A DNA stretch of 42,246 nucleotides from a virus. Of this stretch, positions 7,702 through 39,909 are shown piece after piece. The DNA is taken from IMG/VR virus record IMGVR_UViG_3300047388_000065, positions 1-42,246 of that record. One strand, given 5' to 3'. Made by a program: the position numbers and the translations under genes. Each line of letters starts with the position of its first letter. Within the stretch, counting starts at the first letter, position 1. The notes under the pieces were generated by a model, which worked only from the letters and a program-made list of their open reading frames with translations, searched no databases and had not been told where the DNA came from.

Positions 7702-10700
7702 CGTTGGCGAACTCGTCGCCTACATGAGGTTGGACTCGGCCCAGTTCGATCAGGGTGTCCGCGCCGCGCAGACACAGATGACCGCAGCGGCGGGGTCGGC
7801 TGACCGGCTGGCCGGCGCGGTGGACACGTCGGCGGCGGCGTTGAGCAACGCTGGACGGTCGTCAGCGGTCGGGGCGCGCGGTACCGCGTCGTTCCGTGCC
7901 GCGCAACTGTCGGCGGTGGCGGCGACGGAACGGTACAACGCACTGCTGAATCAGGAGGGTGTGTCACTGGGGCGTCTCGCCTCTGCTGAGGCGACCGCGA
8001 TCCGCGCCAATGAGCGGGTCACCGCTACCACGCGGGCGGCGGCGGCGGCGCAGGCGAAACAGGTCGCGGCGATCCGGGAGACGAACACAGCGGCTGTAGC
8101 GACGCCGGGGCTGATGGCGCGCAGCGCGTCAGGGTTCGCGTCCGCAGGTAAAGCAGCGCTGGGGCTAGGTGCCCTGTTCGGTGCGTTCGAGTTGGCCCGT
8201 AAGGCGCTGGACGTGACGAAGCAGGCGAACGAGTTTCAGCGGGCGATGGTGCAGGTACAGACCAACGCTGACGTGACCGCCGCGGAAGTGCATAAAGCGG
8301 CCGGTGCCCTGCTGGCGATGGCGGGCCCGGTCGCCGCCGCGCCCGCCGATCTTGCGCTCGCCTGGTATCACGCCAAGAGCGTCGGGTTGGATTACGCGAA
8401 GTCGATCGAGACGACCCGCATCGCCGCGGAGGGTGCGCGGGTCGGTAACGCGAACCTCGAAGAAACGATGAACGCCCTCACGTCGACCGTCGCGTCCGGT
8501 ATCCCCGGTGTGAAGGACATGTCGGGCGCGATGGGTCAGCTGATCGCGATCGTCGGTTCCGGCGACATGAAACTGTCCGACCTCAACCAAGCACTCGGCT
8601 CCGGAATCCTCACTGTGGTCAAGGGTTACGGGTTGTCGTTGACGGATGTCGGCGCGGCGTTGGCGACGTTCGGTGACAACAACATCCGCGGCGCTCACGC
8701 GGCCACCATGCTCCGCATGGCGGTGCAGGCGATGGCTGTGCCGGCGAAGGCGGCATCAGCGCTCATCGGCGATCTGGGCCTCACCAGTGAGGGTTCCGCG
8801 AAAGCGCTCGAAAAGGTTCACCTGACCACGTCCACGCTCGCGAAGGACATGCAGACCGGCGGGTTGAACAAGGCGATTCTCGACCTGAAGAAGCATCTTG
8901 ACGCTGCGGGTGTGACCAGTGTGCAGGTCGGGCAAGTGTTGACGGAGATGTTTGGGAAGAAGGCCGGTCCCGGCATCGCTGTGCTGCTCGGGCAGGTTGA
9001 CCGGCTCGAGTCGAAGTTCAAGATCCTCCGCGACTCGAGTGCGTCGTTCGGTGACAAGTGGCAGGCCACCACGCAAACCGCGTCGTTCGCGCTCGCCTCG
9101 CTCGGCCACAAACTCGAAGCGCTCGGCATCACCCTCACACAGAAACTCGGGCCGGGGATCGCACAGTCCGCAACATGGCTCGGCACCACGATCCCGTCCG
9201 CGCTGCACACGCTGGAAGTGATCCTCGCCCCGCTGATCCACACGGTCGGCGTCGTGCTCGTCGGCGCATGGCAGGCGCTAAAGACCGTGCTGGGTGTCGT
9301 CGGGTCAACGCTGAGCGCAGTCGGCGGGTATTTGGCGCGGAACAAGGAACTGGTCAAGGGCGTCACGACCGCCGTGCTGCTCATGTGGGGCGCGTTCAAA
9401 GCGTATGAGGTCGCGCGGTTCGCGATCGTCGGCGTCACCGCACTGATAAACCGGCTCGGCGCGACCGCCGAGACGACCGCGATGAGACTGTCCACAACCA
9501 GCGGGATGCTCGGCGGGCTCGCCATCGGCATGACTGCCGCCGCGATCGGCGGGTTCGCGCTCGAGAACGCGATCGAAGGCAGCAACAACGCCCTCACCCG
9601 CGCCGGGGCGCTCGTCAAATCGTTCGCCGACGAGATCACCGCAGCGGACCAAGCACAGTCGACGTGGCGGGACATGTTGCAGCAGTCCAACGGTGTGCTG
9701 ACCGACAGCATCCGGCTCAGCATCGCCAAGCAGCTACAGGACGAAGGGCTCGCTGAGGCGACCGGGAAACTCGGTGTGTCCCTCAATGACGTGATCGACG
9801 CCGTGACGGGCTCCAATGAGTCGTTCACGCAACTGATGACGATCATGAAGCAGAACGGGACGCTGACCGGGCAGCAGGTTACCGGCCTGATCGAGTTGTA
9901 CGGCGCGTATCACACTGCGGGCCGTGAAGCGGGGCAACTGAACACCGTCACCGCGAAGCACACGATGACTGTCGCTGCTGATACGTCGGTGATGCAGTGG
10001 AACATCGACGCCCACGGGCGGCTCGTCGAAACGTCCGCGAAGGCCGGTTCGGCCTTGGACAACACCACGGGCGCAATGGCACGCCAAACCCTCGCCTCGA
10101 CGATCCTGAAGAACGCGATCGACGCCCTGAACGGCGTGAACCTGTCTATCGAGTCAACCAGTGACGCGCTCAGCATCGCGCTCGGGAACCTCGCCAACCA
10201 CACCGCGCTCGCCGCGGGCGCGAACGGGAAAGTGTCCCGCTCACTCGACCAGTCGACGGTGGCGGGTGCGACGAACCGGCAGATGCTCGTCAGCCTCATC
10301 CAGGCCGCGAAAGACGAGGCGCAAGCGGTCGCGGACCAGGCGAAGGCGCACGGCTACGGGCTGCCCGCCGCGTTGAAGGCCGGTAACGCCGCGTTGGCAG
10401 CCAACGAGGAAAAGATCCGCGCCGCTGCGAGAGCGGCAGGCTTGAACGCCGATCAGGTGAACGCGCTCATCAACAGCATCGGGAAGCTCGCGATCATCCA
10501 CGTCCCCACCCCGAAACCGAAGATCGACCCGAAGCCGGCGCAGACACAGATCCAGAAATTGCAGGCCGAAATCAACGCGATCCGGCAAGGGAAAGTCCCC
10601 GGCCTGACCGTCGACATTGAAGCCGCGTATCAGCGGATCAAATACTTGGAGTCGCTGATCGCCGGGTTGAAGGGCGTCACGATCGGCATCAACGCCGGGT

Positions 10701-19885: not shown

Positions 19886-21256
19886 ATGGGCGTTTATCGT
19901 CGCCGCTACTGGCAGGTCCGAGGGCGCCCGAACCGCCAGTGGATCGGCACGAATGCTGCCGCCTCTCTGACGGCGACGGCCACCTGTACCGCCGCTGCGT
20001 CGATGACGGTCGGTGCGGCGGACTCCGTGTTCCCGGCCGCTACCTGCGCCGCTGTAGCTACGGTTACGGTGGCTAGCGCTGATTCGACGTTCCCCGCCGC
20101 AACCTGCGCCGCGCTGGCCTCAGTAAGTGTGGCCGCGCTGGCCTCGACCACGGGCGCAGCCAACATCAGCGTGAACGCACAAGTCACCGTCGCCGCGCTC
20201 GATACCGAACAGGCTGCCGCGACCTGTTCCGCTCTCGCGACCCTCACCGCTGCACCGCTGGTCACCGAGCAGCCTGCGGCAACCTTGGCAGCCATCGCGG
20301 CGCTCGCTGCCGACACGCTCAACTCGACGTTCCCCGCCGCCACGCTCGCAGCGGTCGCGTCCGTCGTCGCGGCTGGCGCGGACTCGACCACCGCCGCAGC
20401 CACCCTGAACGGCCTCGCCGCCGTGAGCGTGGATGCGCTCGACACCAGCAGCGCCGCAGCTACATGCATAGCGCTGGCCAGTGTCGTCGTCGCCGCCAGT
20501 GACACCGAGGCCGCAGCGACACTCCTGGCCTCTCTCGCGACCTTGTCCAGCGACACCCTTGTCACCGAGCAGCCATCAGCCACCCTCAACGTGCTCGCAT
20601 CCCTGGCAGCGGACACCCTTGACACCAGCAACCCCGCTGCGGTCCTGGTCAGCCAGGCGGCGCTCGCTGCCGACACGCTCAACGTCAGCAGCGCGGCGGC
20701 GACCATCCAAACCACAGCGTCGGTCACCGCAGCAGCATTAGACACCGACCCCGCAGCAGCGACACTGGCTGCCTTCGCGGCACTAACCGCTGACGGGTCC
20801 ACATCCACGCCAGGCGGCGCGACACTGACCGTCACCGCCAGCGTCTCGGCCGACACCCTCAACACGGCACCGGCCGCAGTTCAACTCGCCGCACACGCCG
20901 CGATAACCGCCGCCGCGCTCGACATTGCGGCGGGTTCTGCGACCCTCGCCGCAGTCGCCGGCATCGACGTGCAAGCCGTCGCAACGCTCGTGTTCGCAGC
21001 CGTGCTGCAAGCCGTCGCGACGCTGACCGCATCCGGCACCATATTCAACCCCACCCCGACACCGCCCGACCGGGTTCACAGCGTCCCGGCCGAGCACCGG
21101 TTCACGCTCGTCGGCGCCGAGAGCCGTACCGCGTCAGTCGGTGCCGAGCAGCGCAGTCACAGCATCAGCGCAGAGCCGCGCACCGCCTCGATCCCGGCCG
21201 AGCACCGCTTCGCATCCGTCCCCCGCGAGCAGCGCGAAACACCGACAGGCAACTGA
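19886..21256 (+). CDS. Ala-rich 20-residue-repeat fibre protein with C-terminal nonapeptide repeats
   Basis: 456 residues. After a basic N-terminus (MGVYRRRYWQVRGRPNRQWI), residues about 33-375 are built from about 16 units of 20 residues on the theme TLAALASVxxxALDTxxAAA, giving a regular Ala/Thr/Val/Leu pattern expected for a beta-solenoid or another extended repeat fold. Residues 399-452 hold six 9-residue units (SVPAEHRFT, LVGAESRTA, SVGAEQRSH, SISAEPRTA, SIPAEHRFA, SVPREQRET). It probably forms a fibre shaft, with the short repeats as an attachment or tip segment. The next gene is a fibre-tail adaptor type. Confidence 0.75.
   Translation: MGVYRRRYWQVRGRPNRQWIGTNAAASLTATATCTAAASMTVGAADSVFPAATCAAVATVTVASADSTFPAATCAALASVSVAALASTTGAANISVNAQVTVAALDTEQAAATCSALATLTAAPLVTEQPAATLAAIAALAADTLNSTFPAATLAAVASVVAAGADSTTAAATLNGLAAVSVDALDTSSAAATCIALASVVVAASDTEAAATLLASLATLSSDTLVTEQPSATLNVLASLAADTLDTSNPAAVLVSQAALAADTLNVSSAAATIQTTASVTAAALDTDPAAATLAAFAALTADGSTSTPGGATLTVTASVSADTLNTAPAAVQLAAHAAITAAALDIAAGSATLAAVAGIDVQAVATLVFAAVLQAVATLTASGTIFNPTPTPPDRVHSVPAEHRFTLVGAESRTASVGAEQRSHSISAEPRTASIPAEHRFASVPREQRETPTGN
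19982..21010 (+). repeat. About 16 imperfect 60-bp units coding a 20-residue repeat
   Basis: Successive 60-bp units encode TCAAVATVTVASADSTFPAA-like blocks. Several are close at DNA level, for example the CGACGTTCCCCGCCGC segment around 20085 and 20328. The units are diverged, unlike the near-perfect array at 26674. Confidence 0.75.
21080..21241 (+). repeat. Six 27-bp units coding a nonapeptide repeat
   Basis: The nine-residue motif S-(V/I)-x-A-E-x-R-x-x occurs six times in a row at the C-terminus of the Ala-rich protein. The A-E-x-R core is invariant in five of six copies. Confidence 0.7.
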
Positions 21257-25957: not shown

Positions 25958-26331
25958 GCGGCCGGGTTTGCACTTGTGCTGGGACTGCTCCCGGCTATCC
26001 GCAGCACGAAGACTGGTGCGGCAAACCGGAAGTCGACGAGCCCCCAATTAGGACAGTCGCTGAGGGCATGGGTGTGCGGGTGTGCGCCGCTGATTCCCGC
26101 CTGGCGCTCGGAGCCAATCTGACCGAGGCCCTGACAGTCCGCACCGATGGAACGGCGTTCGGTGGCGTGGCGCACGCGCTGACCGATCGCACCCCTCATT
26201 GTCCCGCTGCTGCTAGTGCCCCCCGCCCCAGCAGCAGCGGGCCGCTTACTTCCCTCGCCGCGTTTGACCCCCCTCGACGCGGCGAGGGAAGCACCAACGA
26301 AGGCGCGGGCGGTTCCCGTTTAGCCCGGTAA
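25954..26331 (+). CDS. Cys-rich early protein whose 3' third is folded into hairpins
   Basis: 125 residues. The N-terminus VCTCAGTAPGYPQHEDWCGK has Cys/His spacing suited to a zinc site. The last about 45 codons coincide with three large inverted repeats (26203-26339), so their Pro/Ser/Gly-rich sequence may be constrained by RNA structure rather than protein function; the TAA lies inside the third hairpin. It overlaps the upstream stop. The early part is more convincing than the late part. Confidence 0.5.
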   Translation: MSGRVCTCAGTAPGYPQHEDWCGKPEVDEPPIRTVAEGMGVRVCAADSRLALGANLTEALTVRTDGTAFGGVAHALTDRTPHCPAAASAPRPSSSGPLTSLAAFDPPRRGEGSTNEGAGGSRLAR

Positions 26332-26339
26332 CCGCCCGC
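26203..26339 (+). ncRNA. Three tandem hairpins, each with a 15-nt loop
   Basis: Perfect stems: 12 bp (26203-26214 with 26230-26241), 14 bp (26249-26262 with 26278-26291) and 10 bp (26305-26314 with 26330-26339). Every loop is 15 nt, the first two with a run of six C. Spacers are 7 and 13 nt. No U-tract follows any of them. Alternatives: tandem attenuators before the repeat gene, a structured regulatory RNA, or a replication or protein-binding site. Confidence 0.5.
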
Positions 26340-26364
26340 CACAACCCGCCAAGGAAGGAAACCG

Positions 26365-28005
26365 ATGGCGAGTAGTAAGACGAAGCCTACCGCCGAGAAA
26401 CGCGGACGATGGCTCACCACACTCACCCCCGAACAGGAAGCGATCCTGCCGGCGAAGCGTGACGAGTGGATCGCGCACGGCCTTAGCACCGAGCGAGCAA
26501 ACCGCCCGGAGGCTGAGCGCGGCGTGCGACTCACCTACCGAGCCGCGGGACTCGAGCCGCCCGTGTTCATGATCTGGGTCGATTCCCCGTTCGCTGGTGC
26601 TTACGCACAAGCGCTCGCCCCGGAGTTGATCACTAGGGCAATGAGCGCCTTCGGCGCACCGACCCACCCCGCCACGGCTCAGGTCGGGGCTCAGGTCACG
26701 GATCAGGTCTGGGCTCAGGTCTGGGCTCAGGTCACGGATCAGGTCACGGATCAGGTCACGGATCAGGTCACGGCTCAGGTCACGGATCAGGTCCGGGATC
26801 AGGTCGGGGATCAGCTCTGGGCTCAGGTCTGGGATCAGGTCACGGATCAGGTCACGGTTCAGGTCACGGATCAGGTCTGGGCTCAGGTCTGGGCTCAGGT
26901 CACGGATCATGTCACGGATCAGGTCACGGATCAGGTCACGGATCAGCTCCGGGATCAGGTCCGGGATCAGCTCCGGGATCAGGTCCGGGATCAGCTCCGG
27001 GATCAGGTCCGGGATCAGCTCCGGGATCAGGTCACGGATCATGTCTGGGATCAGCTCCGGGATCAGGTCACGGATCATGTCTGGGATCAGGTCACGGCTC
27101 AGGTCGGGGTTCAGGTCGGGGATCAGCTCTGGGATCAGGTCCGGGCTCAGGTCACGGATCATGTCTGGGATCAGGTCCGGGATCAGGTCACGGATCAGCT
27201 CCGGGATCAGGTCCGGGCTCAGGTCACGGATCATGTCCGGGCTCAGGTCCGGGCTCAGGTCACGGATCAGGTCACGGTTCAGGTCACGGCTCAGGTCGGG
27301 GCTCAGGTCGGGGTTCAGGTCGGGGATCAGGTCGGGGATCGAGCGAAGAACTGGGGAAACGGTCTGATCAGTGACTACTACGCGATCTGGTGGTCCTCAT
27401 GGATCGACACGATGCGCGAGCTGGGCGTCACCGGTCTCGACGCGTGGGAGGGGCAGGAAGTCTTCGCGCGCAACGCGTACTGGTGGTGGGCGTTCAAGGG
27501 CTTCGCGGTTCTGTCCGAGCGGCCTACAGCGATCGTTCGTGATCCGCAGGGCAGGCTGCACAACCCGTCTGGCGCGGCGGTCGCGTTCCGTGATGGCTCC
27601 GCGGTCCACGCGTGGCACGGCACCCGCGTCCCTGCTGACCTGATCGAAACAGGTTGGGACACGCAGCGGATCTTGAAGGAGCCGAACGCGGAGATTCGTC
27701 GTTGCGCGATCGAGCGGATGGGTTGGCCCGCGTTCATCACCGATGCACGGTTGAAGCAAGTCGGAGCGACCGTCGATGACCCCGGTAACCCTGGTCAGAC
27801 GCTCGCGCTGTACGACGTGCCTGAACGCATCTACGACGCGCCGATCCGTGTCCTGATCTGCATCAACGCCACGGTTGAGCGTGACGGCACGCGGCACACA
27901 TTCGGGCTCACCGTGCCCGAGCACATCGCAACCCCGCTCGCTGCTGCGGCGTGGACATTCGACATTCCCGAATCCGAGTACGTCGCACTAGACGCGGCCT
28001 GCTGA
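26365..28005 (+). CDS. DUF6745-like protein carrying a 55-unit tetrapeptide repeat
   Basis: 546 residues. The N-terminal part (about 15-95) has LTPEQEAILPAKRDEWIAHG, ERGVRLTYRAAGLEPP and a WVDSPFAG motif. Residues 104-323 are 55 tetrapeptides of form (T/W/R/G)(D/A/V)(Q/H)(V/L). The C-terminal part (about 325-545) has YYAIWWSSWIDTMRELGV, YWWWAFKGFAVLSERPTAI, GRLHNPSGAAVAFRDG and a WHGTRVP motif. Both ends match a large actinobacterial family I recall as DUF6745 (number from memory); its function is unknown. AAGGAAGG precedes the ATG. The partner gene at 28032 follows. Confidence 0.8.
   Translation: MASSKTKPTAEKRGRWLTTLTPEQEAILPAKRDEWIAHGLSTERANRPEAERGVRLTYRAAGLEPPVFMIWVDSPFAGAYAQALAPELITRAMSAFGAPTHPATAQVGAQVTDQVWAQVWAQVTDQVTDQVTDQVTAQVTDQVRDQVGDQLWAQVWDQVTDQVTVQVTDQVWAQVWAQVTDHVTDQVTDQVTDQLRDQVRDQLRDQVRDQLRDQVRDQLRDQVTDHVWDQLRDQVTDHVWDQVTAQVGVQVGDQLWDQVRAQVTDHVWDQVRDQVTDQLRDQVRAQVTDHVRAQVRAQVTDQVTVQVTAQVGAQVGVQVGDQVGDRAKNWGNGLISDYYAIWWSSWIDTMRELGVTGLDAWEGQEVFARNAYWWWAFKGFAVLSERPTAIVRDPQGRLHNPSGAAVAFRDGSAVHAWHGTRVPADLIETGWDTQRILKEPNAEIRRCAIERMGWPAFITDARLKQVGATVDDPGNPGQTLALYDVPERIYDAPIRVLICINATVERDGTRHTFGLTVPEHIATPLAAAAWTFDIPESEYVALDAAC
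26674..27333 (+). repeat. 55 perfect 12-bp tandem units with no synonymous variation
   Basis: The unit is NNG-GNT-CAK-STC: codon 1 is ACG, TGG, CGG or GGG (23, 10, 15, 7 copies), codon 2 GAT, GCT or GTT (36, 15, 4), codon 3 CAG or CAT (50, 5), codon 4 GTC or CTC (47, 8). All differences change an amino acid. CAT occurs only in TDHV units; CTC is always followed by CGG or TGG. There are 36 GATC sites within 660 bp. No stop arises in several other frames, giving spurious long frames. Confidence 0.97.
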
Positions 28006-28031: not shown

Positions 28032-28445
28032 ATGAGCATCACTCTTGAGCAGGCCATTGACCGTCACGGCGTGGACGTTCTCGACTACCTCGACCGCACC
28101 GCGAGTATCCCGATGATCGGTAAGGCGGGGCGTCAGGGTGACGTGATCGTCCTGGCGCGTAAGGGGCGCAAGGCTGCGACGGTTGCTGTGCCTGCGGCGG
28201 GGTTCCCGGTTGTGCGTGGCGAGAACGGCGGCAACACGCATCTGCTGATCGCTGATGGGTTCGTGTGCTTCGATCCGCTGCCAGTGTCCGCGACAGCGCT
28301 CGACCTCGGCACGCTCACCGTCGCTCCCGGCGCGACCGCGTACCTTGCGCACCCTGAGCACGGGTACATCGGGATCACGCCTGGCACGTATGCGGTTCGC
28401 CGTCAGCGGGAGCAGGCTGATGAGTTGCGTTTGGTTGCGGACTGA
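28032..28445 (+). CDS. Partner protein of the tetrapeptide-repeat gene
   Basis: 137 residues from the ATG at 28032 (AAAGGG upstream). Beta-rich: GRQGDVIVLARKGRKAATVA, AAGFPVVRGENGGNTHLLIA, then YLAHPEHGYIGITPGTYAVR and a final RQREQADELRLVAD. I recall very similar small proteins beside DUF6745-type genes in actinobacterial chromosomes, so the two genes look like one conserved module. Function unknown; its cupin-like beta pattern suggests binding rather than catalysis. It overlaps the next gene by one base. Confidence 0.78.
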   Translation: MSITLEQAIDRHGVDVLDYLDRTASIPMIGKAGRQGDVIVLARKGRKAATVAVPAAGFPVVRGENGGNTHLLIADGFVCFDPLPVSATALDLGTLTVAPGATAYLAHPEHGYIGITPGTYAVRRQREQADELRLVAD

Positions 28446-29064: not shown

Positions 29065-29249
29065 ACCGCCAATCTCTGCTACTGACCGCGAAGGCCGACG
29101 CCGCATGGGAACGCGAAATCAAGGCCGCACGGCTGCCGTCAAACGACCCGCACCGCCTGCCGTACCCCGAAGCCGTACAGCGCGCGATGCGCGCGTGGGC
29201 TCCGCTTCACGCTGCCGCTGAGCGCGCACGTCGGACGGTTGCGTCGTGA
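29061..29249 (+). CDS. Small helical protein
   Basis: 62 residues (MNRQSLLLTAKADAAWEREI, AVQRAMRAWAPLHAAAERAR), wholly helical and Ala/Arg-rich. Start at 29061 chosen by ATGA overlap. Function unknown. Confidence 0.58.
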   Translation: MNRQSLLLTAKADAAWEREIKAARLPSNDPHRLPYPEAVQRAMRAWAPLHAAAERARRTVAS

Positions 29250-29314
29250 GGGTTCTTGCTGCCTGCGCAGCCGCCCTCACCGCCGACGTTCTGCTCGCAT
29301 GGTGGCTGTCATGA
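29246..29314 (+). CDS. Tiny hydrophobic peptide (22 residues)
   Basis: A GTG-started frame encodes VLAACAAALTADVLLAWWL, overlapping both neighbours by four bases (GTGA, ATGA). It could be a membrane peptide, or may serve only to couple translation between its neighbours. Confidence 0.45.
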   Translation: MRVLAACAAALTADVLLAWWLS

Positions 29315-30282
29315 CCCTGTTCGCCGAGGTCTACGAGGGCGACCCGATCCGGCCCGACATGGAGACGCCAACGCCGCTGGATGTGGTTGCCGCACTGTCC
29401 CGTGTGGACCGCGCACGACGTTTGCAACACCTGATAGCGCAGGCGCACGAGATCCATCACGCTGCGTTAGAGACGCATCTACGCGGCCGTTCATTGGTCG
29501 CGGAATGCGTGCTGTTTTCCGGCGGGAACGACTCGACCACGCTGGCCTACCTGTTCCGTGACATCGCGACACACGCGCTCATGGCGAACACCAGCATTGG
29601 CATCGAACAGACACGCCAGTACGTCCGCGACGTGTGTGCGTCGTGGTCGCTGCCGCTCGTCGAAGTGAAGGCCGAGGATTCCTACCGCGATCTCGTGCTC
29701 GGCAACGTGAAGACGAAAGGCGCGGGCGAGGACGTGTGGGCGGGTGGATTCCCTGGCCCTGGCGCGCACGGCACGATGTATCAGCGGTTGAAAGAGCGGG
29801 CGTTCGACCGCGCACGGCACGAGCTCGGGTTCGCTGGTTCGCAGACGAAGGCCGCGACGTTCATCGCCGGACGCCGCCGCCAAGAGTCGAAGAAGCGTGA
29901 AGACGTTCCGCTGTTCGAGCCAGACGGCACCGTGATCTGGGTGTCGCCGCTCGCGCTCTGGACGAAACTCGACATGGCCCAACTGCGCATCACCTACCCC
30001 GACGTGCCACGCAACGAAGTCTCAGACCTACTGCATATGTCCGGCGAATGCTTGTGCGGGGCCTACGCCCACCCTGGCGAGCTAGACGAGATCGGCGAGT
30101 GGTTCCCCGACGTGCGCGCCGAGATCGAGGCGTTGCAGGACGAGGTTCGTGCTGCTGGCTTCGCTGAGCCGTTCTGCACCTGGGGACACGGCCAAGGCAA
30201 ACCCGGTAAGTCTGGTCGGCTATGCGGCTCATGCGAAACGCGTGCAGTGGTTGGTCAACTCGCGTTTGACGTGGCGTCATGA
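29311..30282 (+). CDS. PP-loop (PAPS reductase-like) enzyme
   Basis: 323 residues from the ATG at 29311. Residues 70-75 SGGNDS in VLFSGGNDSTTLAY form the PP-loop of the ATP-pyrophosphatase/PAPS reductase superfamily. Later: GTMYQRLKERAFDRARHELG, FIAGRRRQESKKR (the basic R-R-x-E-S motif of this group) and WVSPLALWTKLDMA. Cys pairs occur in GECLCGAYAH and RLCGSCET. Family members include DndC, which supplies sulfur for DNA phosphorothioation; no other dnd gene is present, so the substrate is open. Modification or counter-defence is possible. Confidence 0.82.
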   Translation: MTLFAEVYEGDPIRPDMETPTPLDVVAALSRVDRARRLQHLIAQAHEIHHAALETHLRGRSLVAECVLFSGGNDSTTLAYLFRDIATHALMANTSIGIEQTRQYVRDVCASWSLPLVEVKAEDSYRDLVLGNVKTKGAGEDVWAGGFPGPGAHGTMYQRLKERAFDRARHELGFAGSQTKAATFIAGRRRQESKKREDVPLFEPDGTVIWVSPLALWTKLDMAQLRITYPDVPRNEVSDLLHMSGECLCGAYAHPGELDEIGEWFPDVRAEIEALQDEVRAAGFAEPFCTWGHGQGKPGKSGRLCGSCETRAVVGQLAFDVAS

Positions 30283-33061: not shown

Positions 33062-33201
33062 ACCACGACTGCCCGCTTCCGAACGCGTGCCGTAAGTACC
33101 GGCATCGACTGTGGATCTGCGATTGCGGCAAGGCGTACACCGCGTTTCTCGACACCAACTGGGCCGCTTCGATCTGGACGTGGAAGCGGTGGAAGCCGTG
33201 A
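33058..33201 (+). CDS. Small zinc-ribbon-like protein (47 residues)
   Basis: HDCPLPNACRKYRHRLWICD continues into CGKAYTAFLDTNWAAS, giving four to five Cys with His, a typical tiny zinc protein of actinophage early regions. ATG at 33058 overlaps the upstream stop; the stop overlaps the methyltransferase GTG. Confidence 0.58.
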   Translation: MNHDCPLPNACRKYRHRLWICDCGKAYTAFLDTNWAASIWTWKRWKP

Positions 33202-33962
33202 CCGCGCTGTATTACCAGGACGAGTCGGTCACGCTCTGGCATGGCGACTACCGCGACGCACTCACCCGCTACAGACGCGACGACTTCGACCTTGTGATCG
33301 CAGACCCGCCCTATGCGGTGACATCGCTCGCCTGGGATCGCTGGCAGACCGAGTGGCCCGAGATCGTCGCGAAATACGCGCGGTCGATGTGGTGCTTCGG
33401 GTCTCTGCGGATGTTCATGGATCGCGCCGCAGAGTTCGGCGACTGGAAGCTGTCACAGGACATCGTGTGGGAGAAACACAACGGGTCATCTCTGGCTGCT
33501 GACCGATTCCGCACCGTGCACGAGCTGGCCGCATTCTTCTACCAGGGCGCGTGGAGTGACATCTACACGAACGTACCGACAACGAGCGACGCAACACCAC
33601 GCAGCGTCCGCCGCAAGGCCCTACCACTACAACACCAGGGCGCCCGCGGCCCATCTGTGTACGAATCGCAGGACGGCGGACCACGCCTCATGCGATCGGT
33701 CATCTACGCCCAGTCGATGCACGGGCAGGCGATCCACCCGACGCAGAAACCGGGTGGCCTCCTCGAGCCGATGATCGAATACGGCTGCAAACCAGGTGGG
33801 CGCGTGCTCGATCCGTTCGCAGGCTCCTGCGCGGTCGGTGTCGCTGCTCGGTCTCTCGGTCGTCGCACCGTATGCGTCGAGGCCCGCGAAGAACAGTGCG
33901 AAGCGGCGGCGAAGTGGCTGTCTAACGACACGCTGACCTTCGGTTCGGAGCGTGTCTCATGA
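33198..33962 (+). CDS. Beta-class DNA methyltransferase (N6-A or N4-C)
   Basis: 254 residues from GTG 33198. Motif IV DPPY at 36-39 comes before motif I (DPFAGSC, 205-211), the order of the beta class; HPTQKP at 180-185 is also typical. Motif I ends Cys rather than the usual Gly. It uses SAM to methylate adenine N6 or cytosine N4 in a target that cannot be read from the sequence. No cognate restriction enzyme is adjacent, so it is an orphan that likely protects phage DNA or marks it. Coupled to both neighbours. Confidence 0.88.
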   Translation: MTALYYQDESVTLWHGDYRDALTRYRRDDFDLVIADPPYAVTSLAWDRWQTEWPEIVAKYARSMWCFGSLRMFMDRAAEFGDWKLSQDIVWEKHNGSSLAADRFRTVHELAAFFYQGAWSDIYTNVPTTSDATPRSVRRKALPLQHQGARGPSVYESQDGGPRLMRSVIYAQSMHGQAIHPTQKPGGLLEPMIEYGCKPGGRVLDPFAGSCAVGVAARSLGRRTVCVEAREEQCEAAAKWLSNDTLTFGSERVS

Positions 33963-34129: not shown

Positions 34130-34599
34130 CCGCACGACGAATGGGACCGCTCAGCGTCTCCGAGTACGAGCGCATCGAAGTGGAATGTAAACGCGCTCTC
34201 GGCTGGACAGCGGAGAAGATCGCGCAGCACTGCCGCATCCCGCTCGTCCGCGTCGACGCCGTATTCATGGCACAAGACGCGCTAGCCCTGGTCGACACCG
34301 CGATCGACATGTACGTCCCCAACCCCGGCCAGAAGCGGCATCACTTCTGCCGTAGTGGTCGCCACGCCCTCACCGACGACAACGTGTACCAACGCCCCAA
34401 CGGTGACCGTGAATGCACTTCCTGTCGCAATGAGCGTAAGCAGCTAGAGCAGCAGGAGGCCACCAGACGGAACGCGGAGAAGACCGCAGACCGCAACGCT
34501 GCGCTCGCAGCCGTCGATGGCCCGCGTGATGCTTTGTACGAGGCCGCGATGGCCGAGGTTGCCCGCATCTACTCCCGCCCAATCTCGAGGAGCGCCTGA
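34126..34599 (+). CDS. HTH plus zinc-finger protein
   Basis: 157 residues from GTG 34126. The first about 65 residues suggest a helix-turn-helix (IEVECKRALGWTAEKIAQHC, RIPLVRVDAVFM). Residues about 70-105 (HHFCRSGRHALTDDNVYQRP, GDRECTSCRNER) form a Cys/His zinc motif common in phage HNH-like and DNA-binding proteins. The rest is a charged helix. It directly precedes an HNH gene and may act with it. Confidence 0.68.
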   Translation: MTARRMGPLSVSEYERIEVECKRALGWTAEKIAQHCRIPLVRVDAVFMAQDALALVDTAIDMYVPNPGQKRHHFCRSGRHALTDDNVYQRPNGDRECTSCRNERKQLEQQEATRRNAEKTADRNAALAAVDGPRDALYEAAMAEVARIYSRPISRSA

Positions 34600-35297
34600 T
34601 GGCTGTCAGCAAGAGACTCCGGTTCGAGATCCTGCGCCGCGACAACCACGCCTGCCGCTACTGCGGCGGCGTCGCGCCGGATGCCGTGCTGACGATCGAC
34701 CACGTCGTACCCGTCACGCTAGGTGGCTCTGACGACCCGTCGAACCTCATCACAGCATGCCGCGACTGCAACGCCGGCAAATCGTCGGTGCCCGCTGAGG
34801 CATCCCTCGTAGACGACGTGCAGCAGGACGCGTTGCGATGGGCGCGCGCCATGACGATCGCCGCCGAGCGTGCGAACCTCGACCGCCAACAGCGCCAGGA
34901 GCGCCGCGAATGGTTCGAGGACGTTTGGAACGAGTGGACGCATGGCGGCGCAATGAAGAAGCCCATCCCTCTCGGCGGAAATTGGGAGAACACGGTCGAC
35001 CGGTTCTTCGAAGTCGGCCTTGCATGGGAGGACTTGCGTGATGCGGTCAACGCCGCGATGTCGTCAAAAGTCCCACCGGACGCGACATTCCGATACTTCT
35101 GCGGCGTCGCCTGGAACATGGTTCGACGACGCCAGGAAGAAGCCAAGGCGATCCTCGACGCAGATGACACTGCGGAGCCGGTTGCGCGACCCTATGACTG
35201 GCTGAACGTTGCAGAGAGCCCAGAGGCCATTTGGGCTCTCGACCAGTTCGCTGCGCTCGCGGCGGTATGCGATGGCCCGAGGTGGGCCGGTGCGTAA
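34599..35297 (+). CDS. HNH endonuclease with C-terminal helical domain
   Basis: 232 residues. The HNH core occupies about 8-62: ILRRDNHACRYCGG (Cys19, Cys22), TIDHVVPVTLGGSD (Asp34-His35), NLITACRDCNAGKSS (Asn49, Cys54, Cys57). The remainder (about 75-230) is helical and acidic, with WFEDVWNEWTHG and FRYFCGVAWNMVRRRQEEAK, perhaps a replication-loader-like segment. It lies just before the replication protein; its stop overlaps that gene. Confidence 0.83.
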   Translation: MAVSKRLRFEILRRDNHACRYCGGVAPDAVLTIDHVVPVTLGGSDDPSNLITACRDCNAGKSSVPAEASLVDDVQQDALRWARAMTIAAERANLDRQQRQERREWFEDVWNEWTHGGAMKKPIPLGGNWENTVDRFFEVGLAWEDLRDAVNAAMSSKVPPDATFRYFCGVAWNMVRRRQEEAKAILDADDTAEPVARPYDWLNVAESPEAIWALDQFAALAAVCDGPRWAGA

Positions 35298-39379: not shown

Positions 39380-39541
39380 ATGCACGCTTGCCAAGTAGCC
39401 GCATTCATCTGCTACATCGTGGCTGTAATCCTGATGCTCATCAGCAAGCGCGTGCCTGACGCAGCCCACTACGCCCTCGCTTTCGTCGCTGCCGGCTTGG
39501 CGTTCCAGGTCGCACCCGCAGTGTTCGAGCTACACGGCTAG
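39380..39541 (+). CDS. Small membrane protein (53 residues)
   Basis: Two hydrophobic segments (VAAFICYIVAVILMLI and YALAFVAAGLAFQVAPAVF) separated by SKRVPDAAH. ATG four bases after the previous stop. Its role is unknown. Confidence 0.58.
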   Translation: MHACQVAAFICYIVAVILMLISKRVPDAAHYALAFVAAGLAFQVAPAVFELHG

Positions 39542-39552
39542 AGCCTCACCGC

Positions 39553-39909
39553 ATGGCACGAGCCGCCCGCACGTGCTCGAGCTGCCCGACGATCATCACC
39601 ACAGGCTCACGCTGCCAGCAATGCACGGCCAAGGCCGAGCGGGCACGAGGCAGCGCAGCACAACGCGGCTACACCGGCACAGGACACCGACAGTTCCGAA
39701 CCGCAGTCCTCGCACGCGACCCCATCTGCAAACGCTGCAACGCAGCATGGGCCACCACAGCAGACCACTACCCGGTGAGCAGACGCGACCTCGTAGACGC
39801 AGGCGAAGACCCCAACGACCCACGCCACGGACGCGGCCTCTGCCACCACTGCCACTCGATAGTCACAGCAGAGCATCAACCCGGCGGCTGGCACGCCACA
39901 GCAACCTAG
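39553..39909 (+). CDS. HNH endonuclease (terminase-associated)
   Basis: 118 residues. Two zinc sites: RTCSSCPTIITTGSRCQQCT at the N-terminus, and CKRCNAAWATTADHYPVS with GLCHHCHSIVTAEH as the HNH core (Asp71-His72, His101). HNH proteins encoded beside the terminase are known in several cos phages to be needed, with TerL, for cleavage at cos. This location, upstream of TerS, fits. Confidence 0.83.
   Translation: MARAARTCSSCPTIITTGSRCQQCTAKAERARGSAAQRGYTGTGHRQFRTAVLARDPICKRCNAAWATTADHYPVSRRDLVDAGEDPNDPRHGRGLCHHCHSIVTAEHQPGGWHATAT

What the first reader, a model, noticed from the sequence alone, without database searches (positions are those of the whole stretch)
26674..27333. 55-unit 12-bp array that varies only at amino-acid-changing positions
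All 55 units fit NNG-GNT-CAK-STC. They encode (T/W/R/G)(D/A/V)(Q/H)(V/L) with many amino acid differences and no synonymous difference in 660 bp. Ordinary decay of a repeat would leave silent changes. Simple slippage of one ancestor would not create four first codons, three second codons and linked variants (CAT only in TDHV; CTC always before CGG or TGG). Either a small set of variant units is being shuffled by recombination, or the array is diversified under strong DNA- or RNA-level constraint. The surface of the repeat domain would then differ among phage relatives.
Basis: seen in the sequence. Interest (0 to 1): 0.85.

Follow-up and report, generated by a model that had tools for sequence, protein, structure and literature searches.

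The report
Hypervariable four-residue repeat array in phages
Many phages carry a protein built from dozens of four-amino-acid units that are identical except at two positions, and the number and order of units change completely between near-identical phages, as if the array were a rapidly rewritten specificity code of an undescribed two-gene system.

Summary
In detail: 55/55 units fit NNG-GNT-CAK-STC, 15 unit types, no silent difference. The array lies inside a DUF6745 gene (26365-28005), between an N-terminal domain and DUF6745. It is not a one-off. I found 111 comparable arrays (2,999 units); 85 have no silent variant, with 437 distinct amino-acid variants against 40 silent ones (about 24% silent expected; p=5e-19; p=3e-13 in the set ascertained without using array DNA). 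The silent codon 'dialect' is fixed within an array but differs between arrays, so a general DNA/RNA constraint is not needed; founder unit, homogenising turnover and selection for diversity at residues 1-2 explain it. Near-identical prophages (1 mismatch in 6.5 kb of flanks) carry different arrays; one further relative and a Nocardia pair have unrelated order. Two extensions: DUF6745 nearly always sits beside an uncharacterised small beta protein (109/110 viral, 76/77 cellular loci; window 28032-28445), and some phages with array-less DUF6745 carry arrays in trans as nearby small genes, in two loci 7-8 ATGA-coupled genes. Best reading: a hypervariable specificity module of an undescribed two-gene system, TALE-like in logic but not related. 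The target is unknown.

The parts
26365..28005 (+). Gene of 546 aa: N-terminal domain + 55-unit array + DUF6745 domain (stop included)
   Evidence: the ORF listing; Pfam PF20530 117.7 bits against cut-off 27; 37 protein relatives in viral contigs
26365..26673 (+). Conserved N-terminal domain (LTPEQ...GLSTERANRPEAERGVRLTYRAAGLEPP...WVDSP)
   Evidence: Conserved in relatives; AlphaFold pLDDT about 90 or more over residues 20-90
26674..27333 (+). 55 x 12-bp units coding (T/R/W/G)(D/A/V)(Q/H)(V/L)
   Evidence: modelled as helix with low confidence, pLDDT mostly 40-65
27334..27345 (+). Degenerate last unit (GGGGATCGAGCG, GDRA)
27433..27984 (+). DUF6745 (PF20530) domain, residues 357-540
   Evidence: E=5.3e-34; pLDDT mostly above 90; no PDB fold match
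28032..28445 (+). Partner gene, 137 aa small beta protein (QGD ... H ... EHG ... PGTY..RRQRE ... VAD), no named family
   Evidence: Profile from neighbours of other DUF6745 genes finds it at E=7.7e-29; phrog_27831, unknown function; no Pfam, NCBIfam or PADLOC match of weight; AlphaFold pLDDT 92, no PDB fold match

Best explanation
The array is the hypervariable specificity module of a phage-borne two-gene system (DUF6745 protein + small beta partner). Each 4-aa unit has a fixed framework (Q-V here; S-V, Q-L, A-V or S-L in other phages) and two variable residues (mostly Gly/Trp/Arg then Asp/Ala or Asp/Gly). Unequal recombination or slippage adds, deletes and copies units and blocks, which keeps silent and framework positions homogeneous in each array; new residue variants arise by single-base steps at codons 1 and 2, and selection for a diverse or changing residue sequence keeps them while silent variants are lost. 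The rewritten residue sequence then decides what the protein recognises. Shown: anatomy, family-wide excess of amino-acid over silent variants, per-array codon dialects, rapid change of order and number, obligate-looking partner, arrays in trans. Inferred: that selection is for recognition, and of what. Most likely in my view is recognition of a variable target, or of a matching array, that separates self from competing phage or host.
For:: 111 arrays, 437 distinct amino-acid against 40 silent variants, p=5e-19; array-blind set (found through DUF6745 alone) 185 against 11, p=3e-13; 85/111 arrays without silent variants; Arg at residue 1 is all AGG (61 arrays) or all CGG (28), mixed in 4; three M. 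abscessus prophages with 0/640 downstream gene-flank mismatches, one mismatch in about 6.5 kb compared, and arrays of 46, 19 and at least 20 units sharing blocks (z about 5); a fourth with 1/880 mismatches has 62 units of unrelated order (z -0.2); two N. farcinica with the same N-terminal protein sequence and 4/640 mismatches downstream have 38 and 15 units, unrelated order; repeated unit blocks exceed shuffles, z about 14; array-wide dialect changes on the DUF6745 tree; partner gene; array cassettes in trans, 7 and 8 ATGA-coupled genes in L287 and L296. Precedent: RVD codon pairs of TALEs, 25 of 26 single-nucleotide changes nonsynonymous (PMC4753510).
Against: No target, binding or phenotype was shown. 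The array model is of low confidence. The same data could come from selection for irregular sequence (solubility, avoidance of aggregation or of perfect DNA repeats) without recognition. Several array-less viral DUF6745 genes show no trans array within the few kb held (L237, L244, L253, L255, L294, L302). Most sister arrays are from short-read assemblies whose copy number may be wrong.
Confidence: 0.6

Rival explanations
1. Structural filler: the array is a spacer or oligomerisation stalk whose exact order does not matter; residues 1 and 2 vary because they are tolerant, and concerted evolution removes silent variants by chance.
For: Unit order is close to random at lag 1 (0.195 against 0.194 shuffled); length varies from 8 to 62 units; helix-like model.
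Against: Drift and homogenisation treat silent and tolerated amino-acid variants alike, yet silent types are 8% of variant types against about 24% expected. The same restricted alphabets recur in arrays of different dialect. Separate sets of array-only genes are hard to see as a spacer.
Confidence: 0.2
2. DNA- or RNA-level element: the 12-bp repeat is conserved for a nucleic-acid function such as binding sites or an RNA structure, and the coding sequence follows.
For: An exact DNA pattern of four units hits 111 stretches of viral contigs. The window array uses GAT in 36/36 Asp codons although other window genes use it in 20%.
Against: Silent codons differ freely between arrays, and TCG or AGC can replace CAG. 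In almost every array checked the pattern is in the NNG-GNT-CAG-GTC frame of an open reading frame. GAT throughout is one founder draw, not 36.
Confidence: 0.06
3. Programmed mutagenesis (diversity-generating retroelement or similar) writes new bases at the variable positions.
For: Variation is confined to fixed nucleotide positions, mainly base 1 of codon 1 and base 2 of codon 2.
Against: No RVT_1 in the window or 14 other records from this family (controls positive). Random writing of base 1 of NGG would give AGG and CGG together; only 4 of 105 arrays mix Arg codons. No other 12-bp array in the window that could be a template.
Confidence: 0.05
4. Assembly artefact: collapsed or scrambled repeats.
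For: Arrays often sit at contig ends. The window array holds a stretch alternating RDQL/RDQV (26950-27033).
Against: The same fixed-silent pattern appears in over 100 arrays from many contigs; N. farcinica NCTC11134 carries a 38-unit array in two records with the same unit order apart from a break of frame in one; prophiGD102-1 comes from 300-base paired reads, with Nanopore reads in some cases (PMC8092301). Artefacts would not avoid silent changes.
Confidence: 0.04

Closest known systems
TAL effectors / TALE-likes (repeat-variable diresidues)
   Same: Tandem framework repeats with two adjacent variable residues per unit; changes in their codons overwhelmingly nonsynonymous (PMC4753510); unit number and order differ between relatives through recombination; sets of paralogous arrays in one genome (compare the trans cassettes).
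   Different: 4-aa not 33-35-aa units, no sequence relation, DUF6745 context with a conserved partner, phage-borne, no known DNA target.
Pfam DUF6745 (PF20530)
   Same: The C-terminal 180 residues are a clear member.
   Different: Cellular actinobacterial members examined have no array, apart from apparent prophage or plasmid copies; the domain has no known function and I found no paper naming it.
Diversity-generating retroelements of phages
   Same: Fixed scaffold, diversified residues, phage context.
   Different: No reverse transcriptase found and the base spectrum does not fit.
Phage or surface VNTR proteins (tail-fibre collagen-like repeats, surface antigens)
   Same: Unit number varies between isolates.
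   Different: Not in a structural operon (neighbours include RepA-like, ERF, HTH and WhiB genes); unit variation is ordered at two positions with fixed silent sites.

Membership tests
DUF6745 (PF20530) | Profile score above the curated cut-off | tested here: met
   117.7 bits against 27
DUF6745 + partner module (defined here) | Small QGD...PG.Y..RQRE protein gene next to DUF6745 on the same strand | tested here: met
   Window 28032-28445, E=7.7e-29; family-wide 95/110 viral and 66/77 cellular adjacent
TALE / TALE-like | 33-35-residue two-helix repeats | tested here: not met
   4-residue units; Pfam, NCBIfam and PADLOC show no TALE match
TALE / TALE-like | One repeat reads one DNA base | not testable with these tools
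   Needs binding experiments
Diversity-generating retroelement | Reverse transcriptase gene nearby | tested here: not met
   PF00078 absent from 15 records of this family, controls positive
Diversity-generating retroelement | Adenine-directed substitution to any base | tested here: not met
   AGG or CGG but almost never both in one array; the A of CAG almost never varies
Known anti-phage defence systems (PADLOC) | Profile match of either gene | tested here: not met
   Only weak hits to the repeat, E above 0.01; none for the partner
Toxin-antitoxin or immunity pair | Two adjacent co-oriented genes conserved together | tested here: met
   this alone is not diagnostic
Toxin-antitoxin or immunity pair | Toxicity of one gene neutralised by the other | not tested
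   Experiment needed

The most novel reading that the evidence does not exclude
The unit sequence is a readable protein code: each tetrapeptide's variable pair contacts one element of a target (a base, or a unit of another array through Trp-Gly and Arg-Asp complementarity), and phages with tandem trans cassettes keep a repertoire of such specificities used by one DUF6745-partner machine, a protein-coded counterpart of a spacer array.
Probability: 0.2. Interest if true: 0.97.

Novelty: categorically new. Interest (0 to 1): 0.86.

Why it matters
If the array is a specificity code, it would have by far the shortest repeat unit I know of for a modular recognition protein (4 residues, about 6 common unit types in most arrays), already diversified by nature in many phages, and tied to two protein families without known function or fold match. 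Even without a code, it is an unusually clean natural case of diversifying selection acting inside a concertedly evolving array, because every array serves as its own silent-site control. The next questions (how fast arrays are rewritten, whether order matters, what they bind) are directly testable.

Tried and rejected
Alignment of 16 diverse DUF6745 domains was too divergent for collection scans; a narrower alignment worked. Foldseek of the whole protein and of the partner against PDB gave nothing usable; the viral library returned only other DUF6745 and unnamed phage proteins. Paper searches for DUF6745, tetrapeptide hypervariable arrays and STM4011-4015 gave no description; the library lacks preprints and most subscription journals, so absence there is weak. 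Considered and rejected: gas-vesicle GvpQ, trigger factor, YpjP and plasmid-stability hits, all weak and on the repeat itself. The reverse-strand ORF across the array (26320-27234) follows from a 12-bp period and is not evidence of a gene. An all-against-all of 80 cellular loci timed out and was repeated with 17. The DNA-pattern scan is biased to one codon dialect, so statistics are also given for loci found through DUF6745 alone; in those 43 arrays the dialects are far more mixed.

Full report
Observation. They lie in frame in a 546-aa gene, 26365-28005, whose C-terminal part is DUF6745 (PF20530, 117.7 bits). The gene is in the non-structural half of the genome; a portal gene lies at 459-2036 and HTH/excisionase-like genes at 23.1 and 25.3 kb. 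AlphaFold gives two confident domains on either side of the array and a low-confidence helix for the array.

A family-wide pattern. Protein and pattern scans brought in relatives, and an array-blind scan with DUF6745 alone brought in 80 bacterial and 80 viral loci. Phage members mostly carry 8-62 tetrapeptide units; typical actinobacterial chromosomal members carry none. In 111 arrays of at least 12 units (2,999 units), 85 have no silent variant at all. Counting each variant type once per array gives 437 amino-acid against 40 silent types where about 24% silent is expected (p=5e-19); in the 43 arrays of the array-blind set, 185 against 11 (p=3e-13). The window alone would not be significant (p=0.13), so this is a property of the family. 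These tests treat arrays as independent; some are related.

Silent positions are fixed inside an array but not between arrays. Dialects include CAG GTC, CAG GTG, CAG GTT, CAA GTC, CAA GTT, TCG GTC, AGC GTC, AGC GTG, CAG CTC, CAG CTT, GCG GTG and TCG CTC. Arg at residue 1 is all AGG in 61 arrays, all CGG in 28, all CGC in 11. On a tree of 93 DUF6745 domains the framework dipeptide changed at least 12 times, the third base of codon 2 at least 15, the Arg codon at least 21. That is concerted evolution from a founder unit, and it argues against a general DNA- or RNA-level constraint. The residue alphabets are sets of one-base neighbours (NGG: Gly, Trp, Arg; or NRC: Asp, Tyr, His, Gly, Arg), which suggests that variants arise by point mutation and spread by recombination.

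Tempo and mode. Three M. abscessus prophages (prophiGD102-1, L241, L242) have no mismatch in the 640 bp downstream of the array and one mismatch in about 6.5 kb compared, but arrays of 46, 19 and at least 20 units. Their arrays share blocks (z about 5) and differ by block indels and unit replacements at residues 1-2. A fourth relative (L243; 1 mismatch in 880) has 62 units in unrelated order (z -0.2). Two N. farcinica loci with the same N-terminal protein sequence and 4/640 mismatches downstream have 38 and 15 units in unrelated order. L007 and L008 differ by one unit. Repeated multi-unit blocks exceed shuffles (z about 14) while neighbouring units are no more alike than chance. Sequencing behind prophiGD102-1 was Illumina 300-base paired reads with Nanopore in some cases (PMC8092301). 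The module looks accessory: among sequenced phages only prophiGD102-1 matches this array gene, while syntenic M. abscessus prophages match only parts of the region.

Partner gene. The most frequent neighbour of array-bearing DUF6745 genes is a gene of about 100-137 aa on the same strand. A profile of it finds the window's next gene, 28032-28445, at E=7.7e-29. Of DUF6745 genes with 900 bp of flank on both sides, 109/110 viral and 76/77 cellular loci contain it; 95 and 66 have it adjacent. Five positions are invariant among 64 sequences, two of them His. It has no named family (phrog_27831 is of unknown function), a confident all-beta model and no fold match in PDB. In actinobacterial chromosomes the pair often lies near genes that I recognise from memory as the STM4011-STM4015 group (radical-SAM and hydrolase-like sequences); this assignment was not tested with profiles.

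Arrays in trans. Several phages whose DUF6745 lacks an array carry a set of small genes near it (3-12 found per locus), each a constant head (MKLKSV, MKSL, MNSV, MKTLGKPV), roughly 5-20 xxQV or xxSV units and a constant tail. In L287 seven and in L296 eight such genes follow one another, each overlapping the next by ATGA. xxQV arrays also occur in another protein (L105, L128, L132, L074, L114); no DUF6745 was found in the whole records of the two tested, L105 and L128.

Mechanism. Shown: framework and variable residues, excess of amino-acid variants, homogenised silent sites, fast change of order and number, a conserved partner, a trans form. Inferred: that diversity is kept because it changes what the protein recognises. 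Recombination between units supplies the change; selection supplies the contrast between residues 1-2 and silent sites. A diversity-generating retroelement is unlikely: no reverse transcriptase in 15 records of this family and AGG/CGG exclusivity. The closest logic is the TALE array, whose diresidue codons also change almost only nonsynonymously (25 of 26 single-base cases, PMC4753510); membership fails on unit length and sequence.

Limits. No function was tested. Ascertainment by DNA pattern favours one dialect; the array-blind subset removes that. Many contigs are short-read assemblies. The literature library holds only open PMC papers, so novelty is judged mainly on absence from Pfam (beyond the DUF), NCBIfam, PADLOC and PDB.

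Noticed in passing
window 28032-28445: Uncharacterised small beta protein that accompanies DUF6745 in nearly all viral and cellular loci examined; no named family, no PDB fold match.
   Followed up: yes
L287:6498-7787; L296:4692-6274; also L278, L288, L300, L307, L034, L035, L082: Tandem runs of small genes made only of xxQV or xxSV units with constant head and tail; in L287 and L296 all overlap by ATGA. They lie near an array-less DUF6745.
   Followed up: partly
L105, L128, L132, L074, L114: xxQV arrays inside another phage protein ending ...SYWAVK..LGL...GVMIV...VFGKKGKYLGEYD; no DUF6745 or partner in the locus held.
   Followed up: partly
L174, L200, L220 and other actinobacterial loci: Chromosomal DUF6745-partner pairs lie near what look like STM4011-STM4015 family genes (radical SAM, hydrolase, ATP-grasp); assigned from memory, not by profile.
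   Followed up: no
L309 / L310: N. farcinica NCTC11134 has near-identical DUF6745-array copies on two deposited plasmids; one copy is broken by frame changes, possibly a sequencing error or a duplicated record.
   Followed up: partly
window 29239-30282, 33111-33962, 34599-35297: PAPS-reductase-domain protein, N6/N4 DNA methylase and HNH endonuclease genes in the same phage region; PAPS-reductase-like genes also occur at the matching place in relatives of prophiGD102-1.
   Followed up: no
window 20029-20140, 39533-39588, 8717-8753, 21175-21217: Other short tandem repeats reported by TRF, none with a 12-bp period.
   Followed up: no
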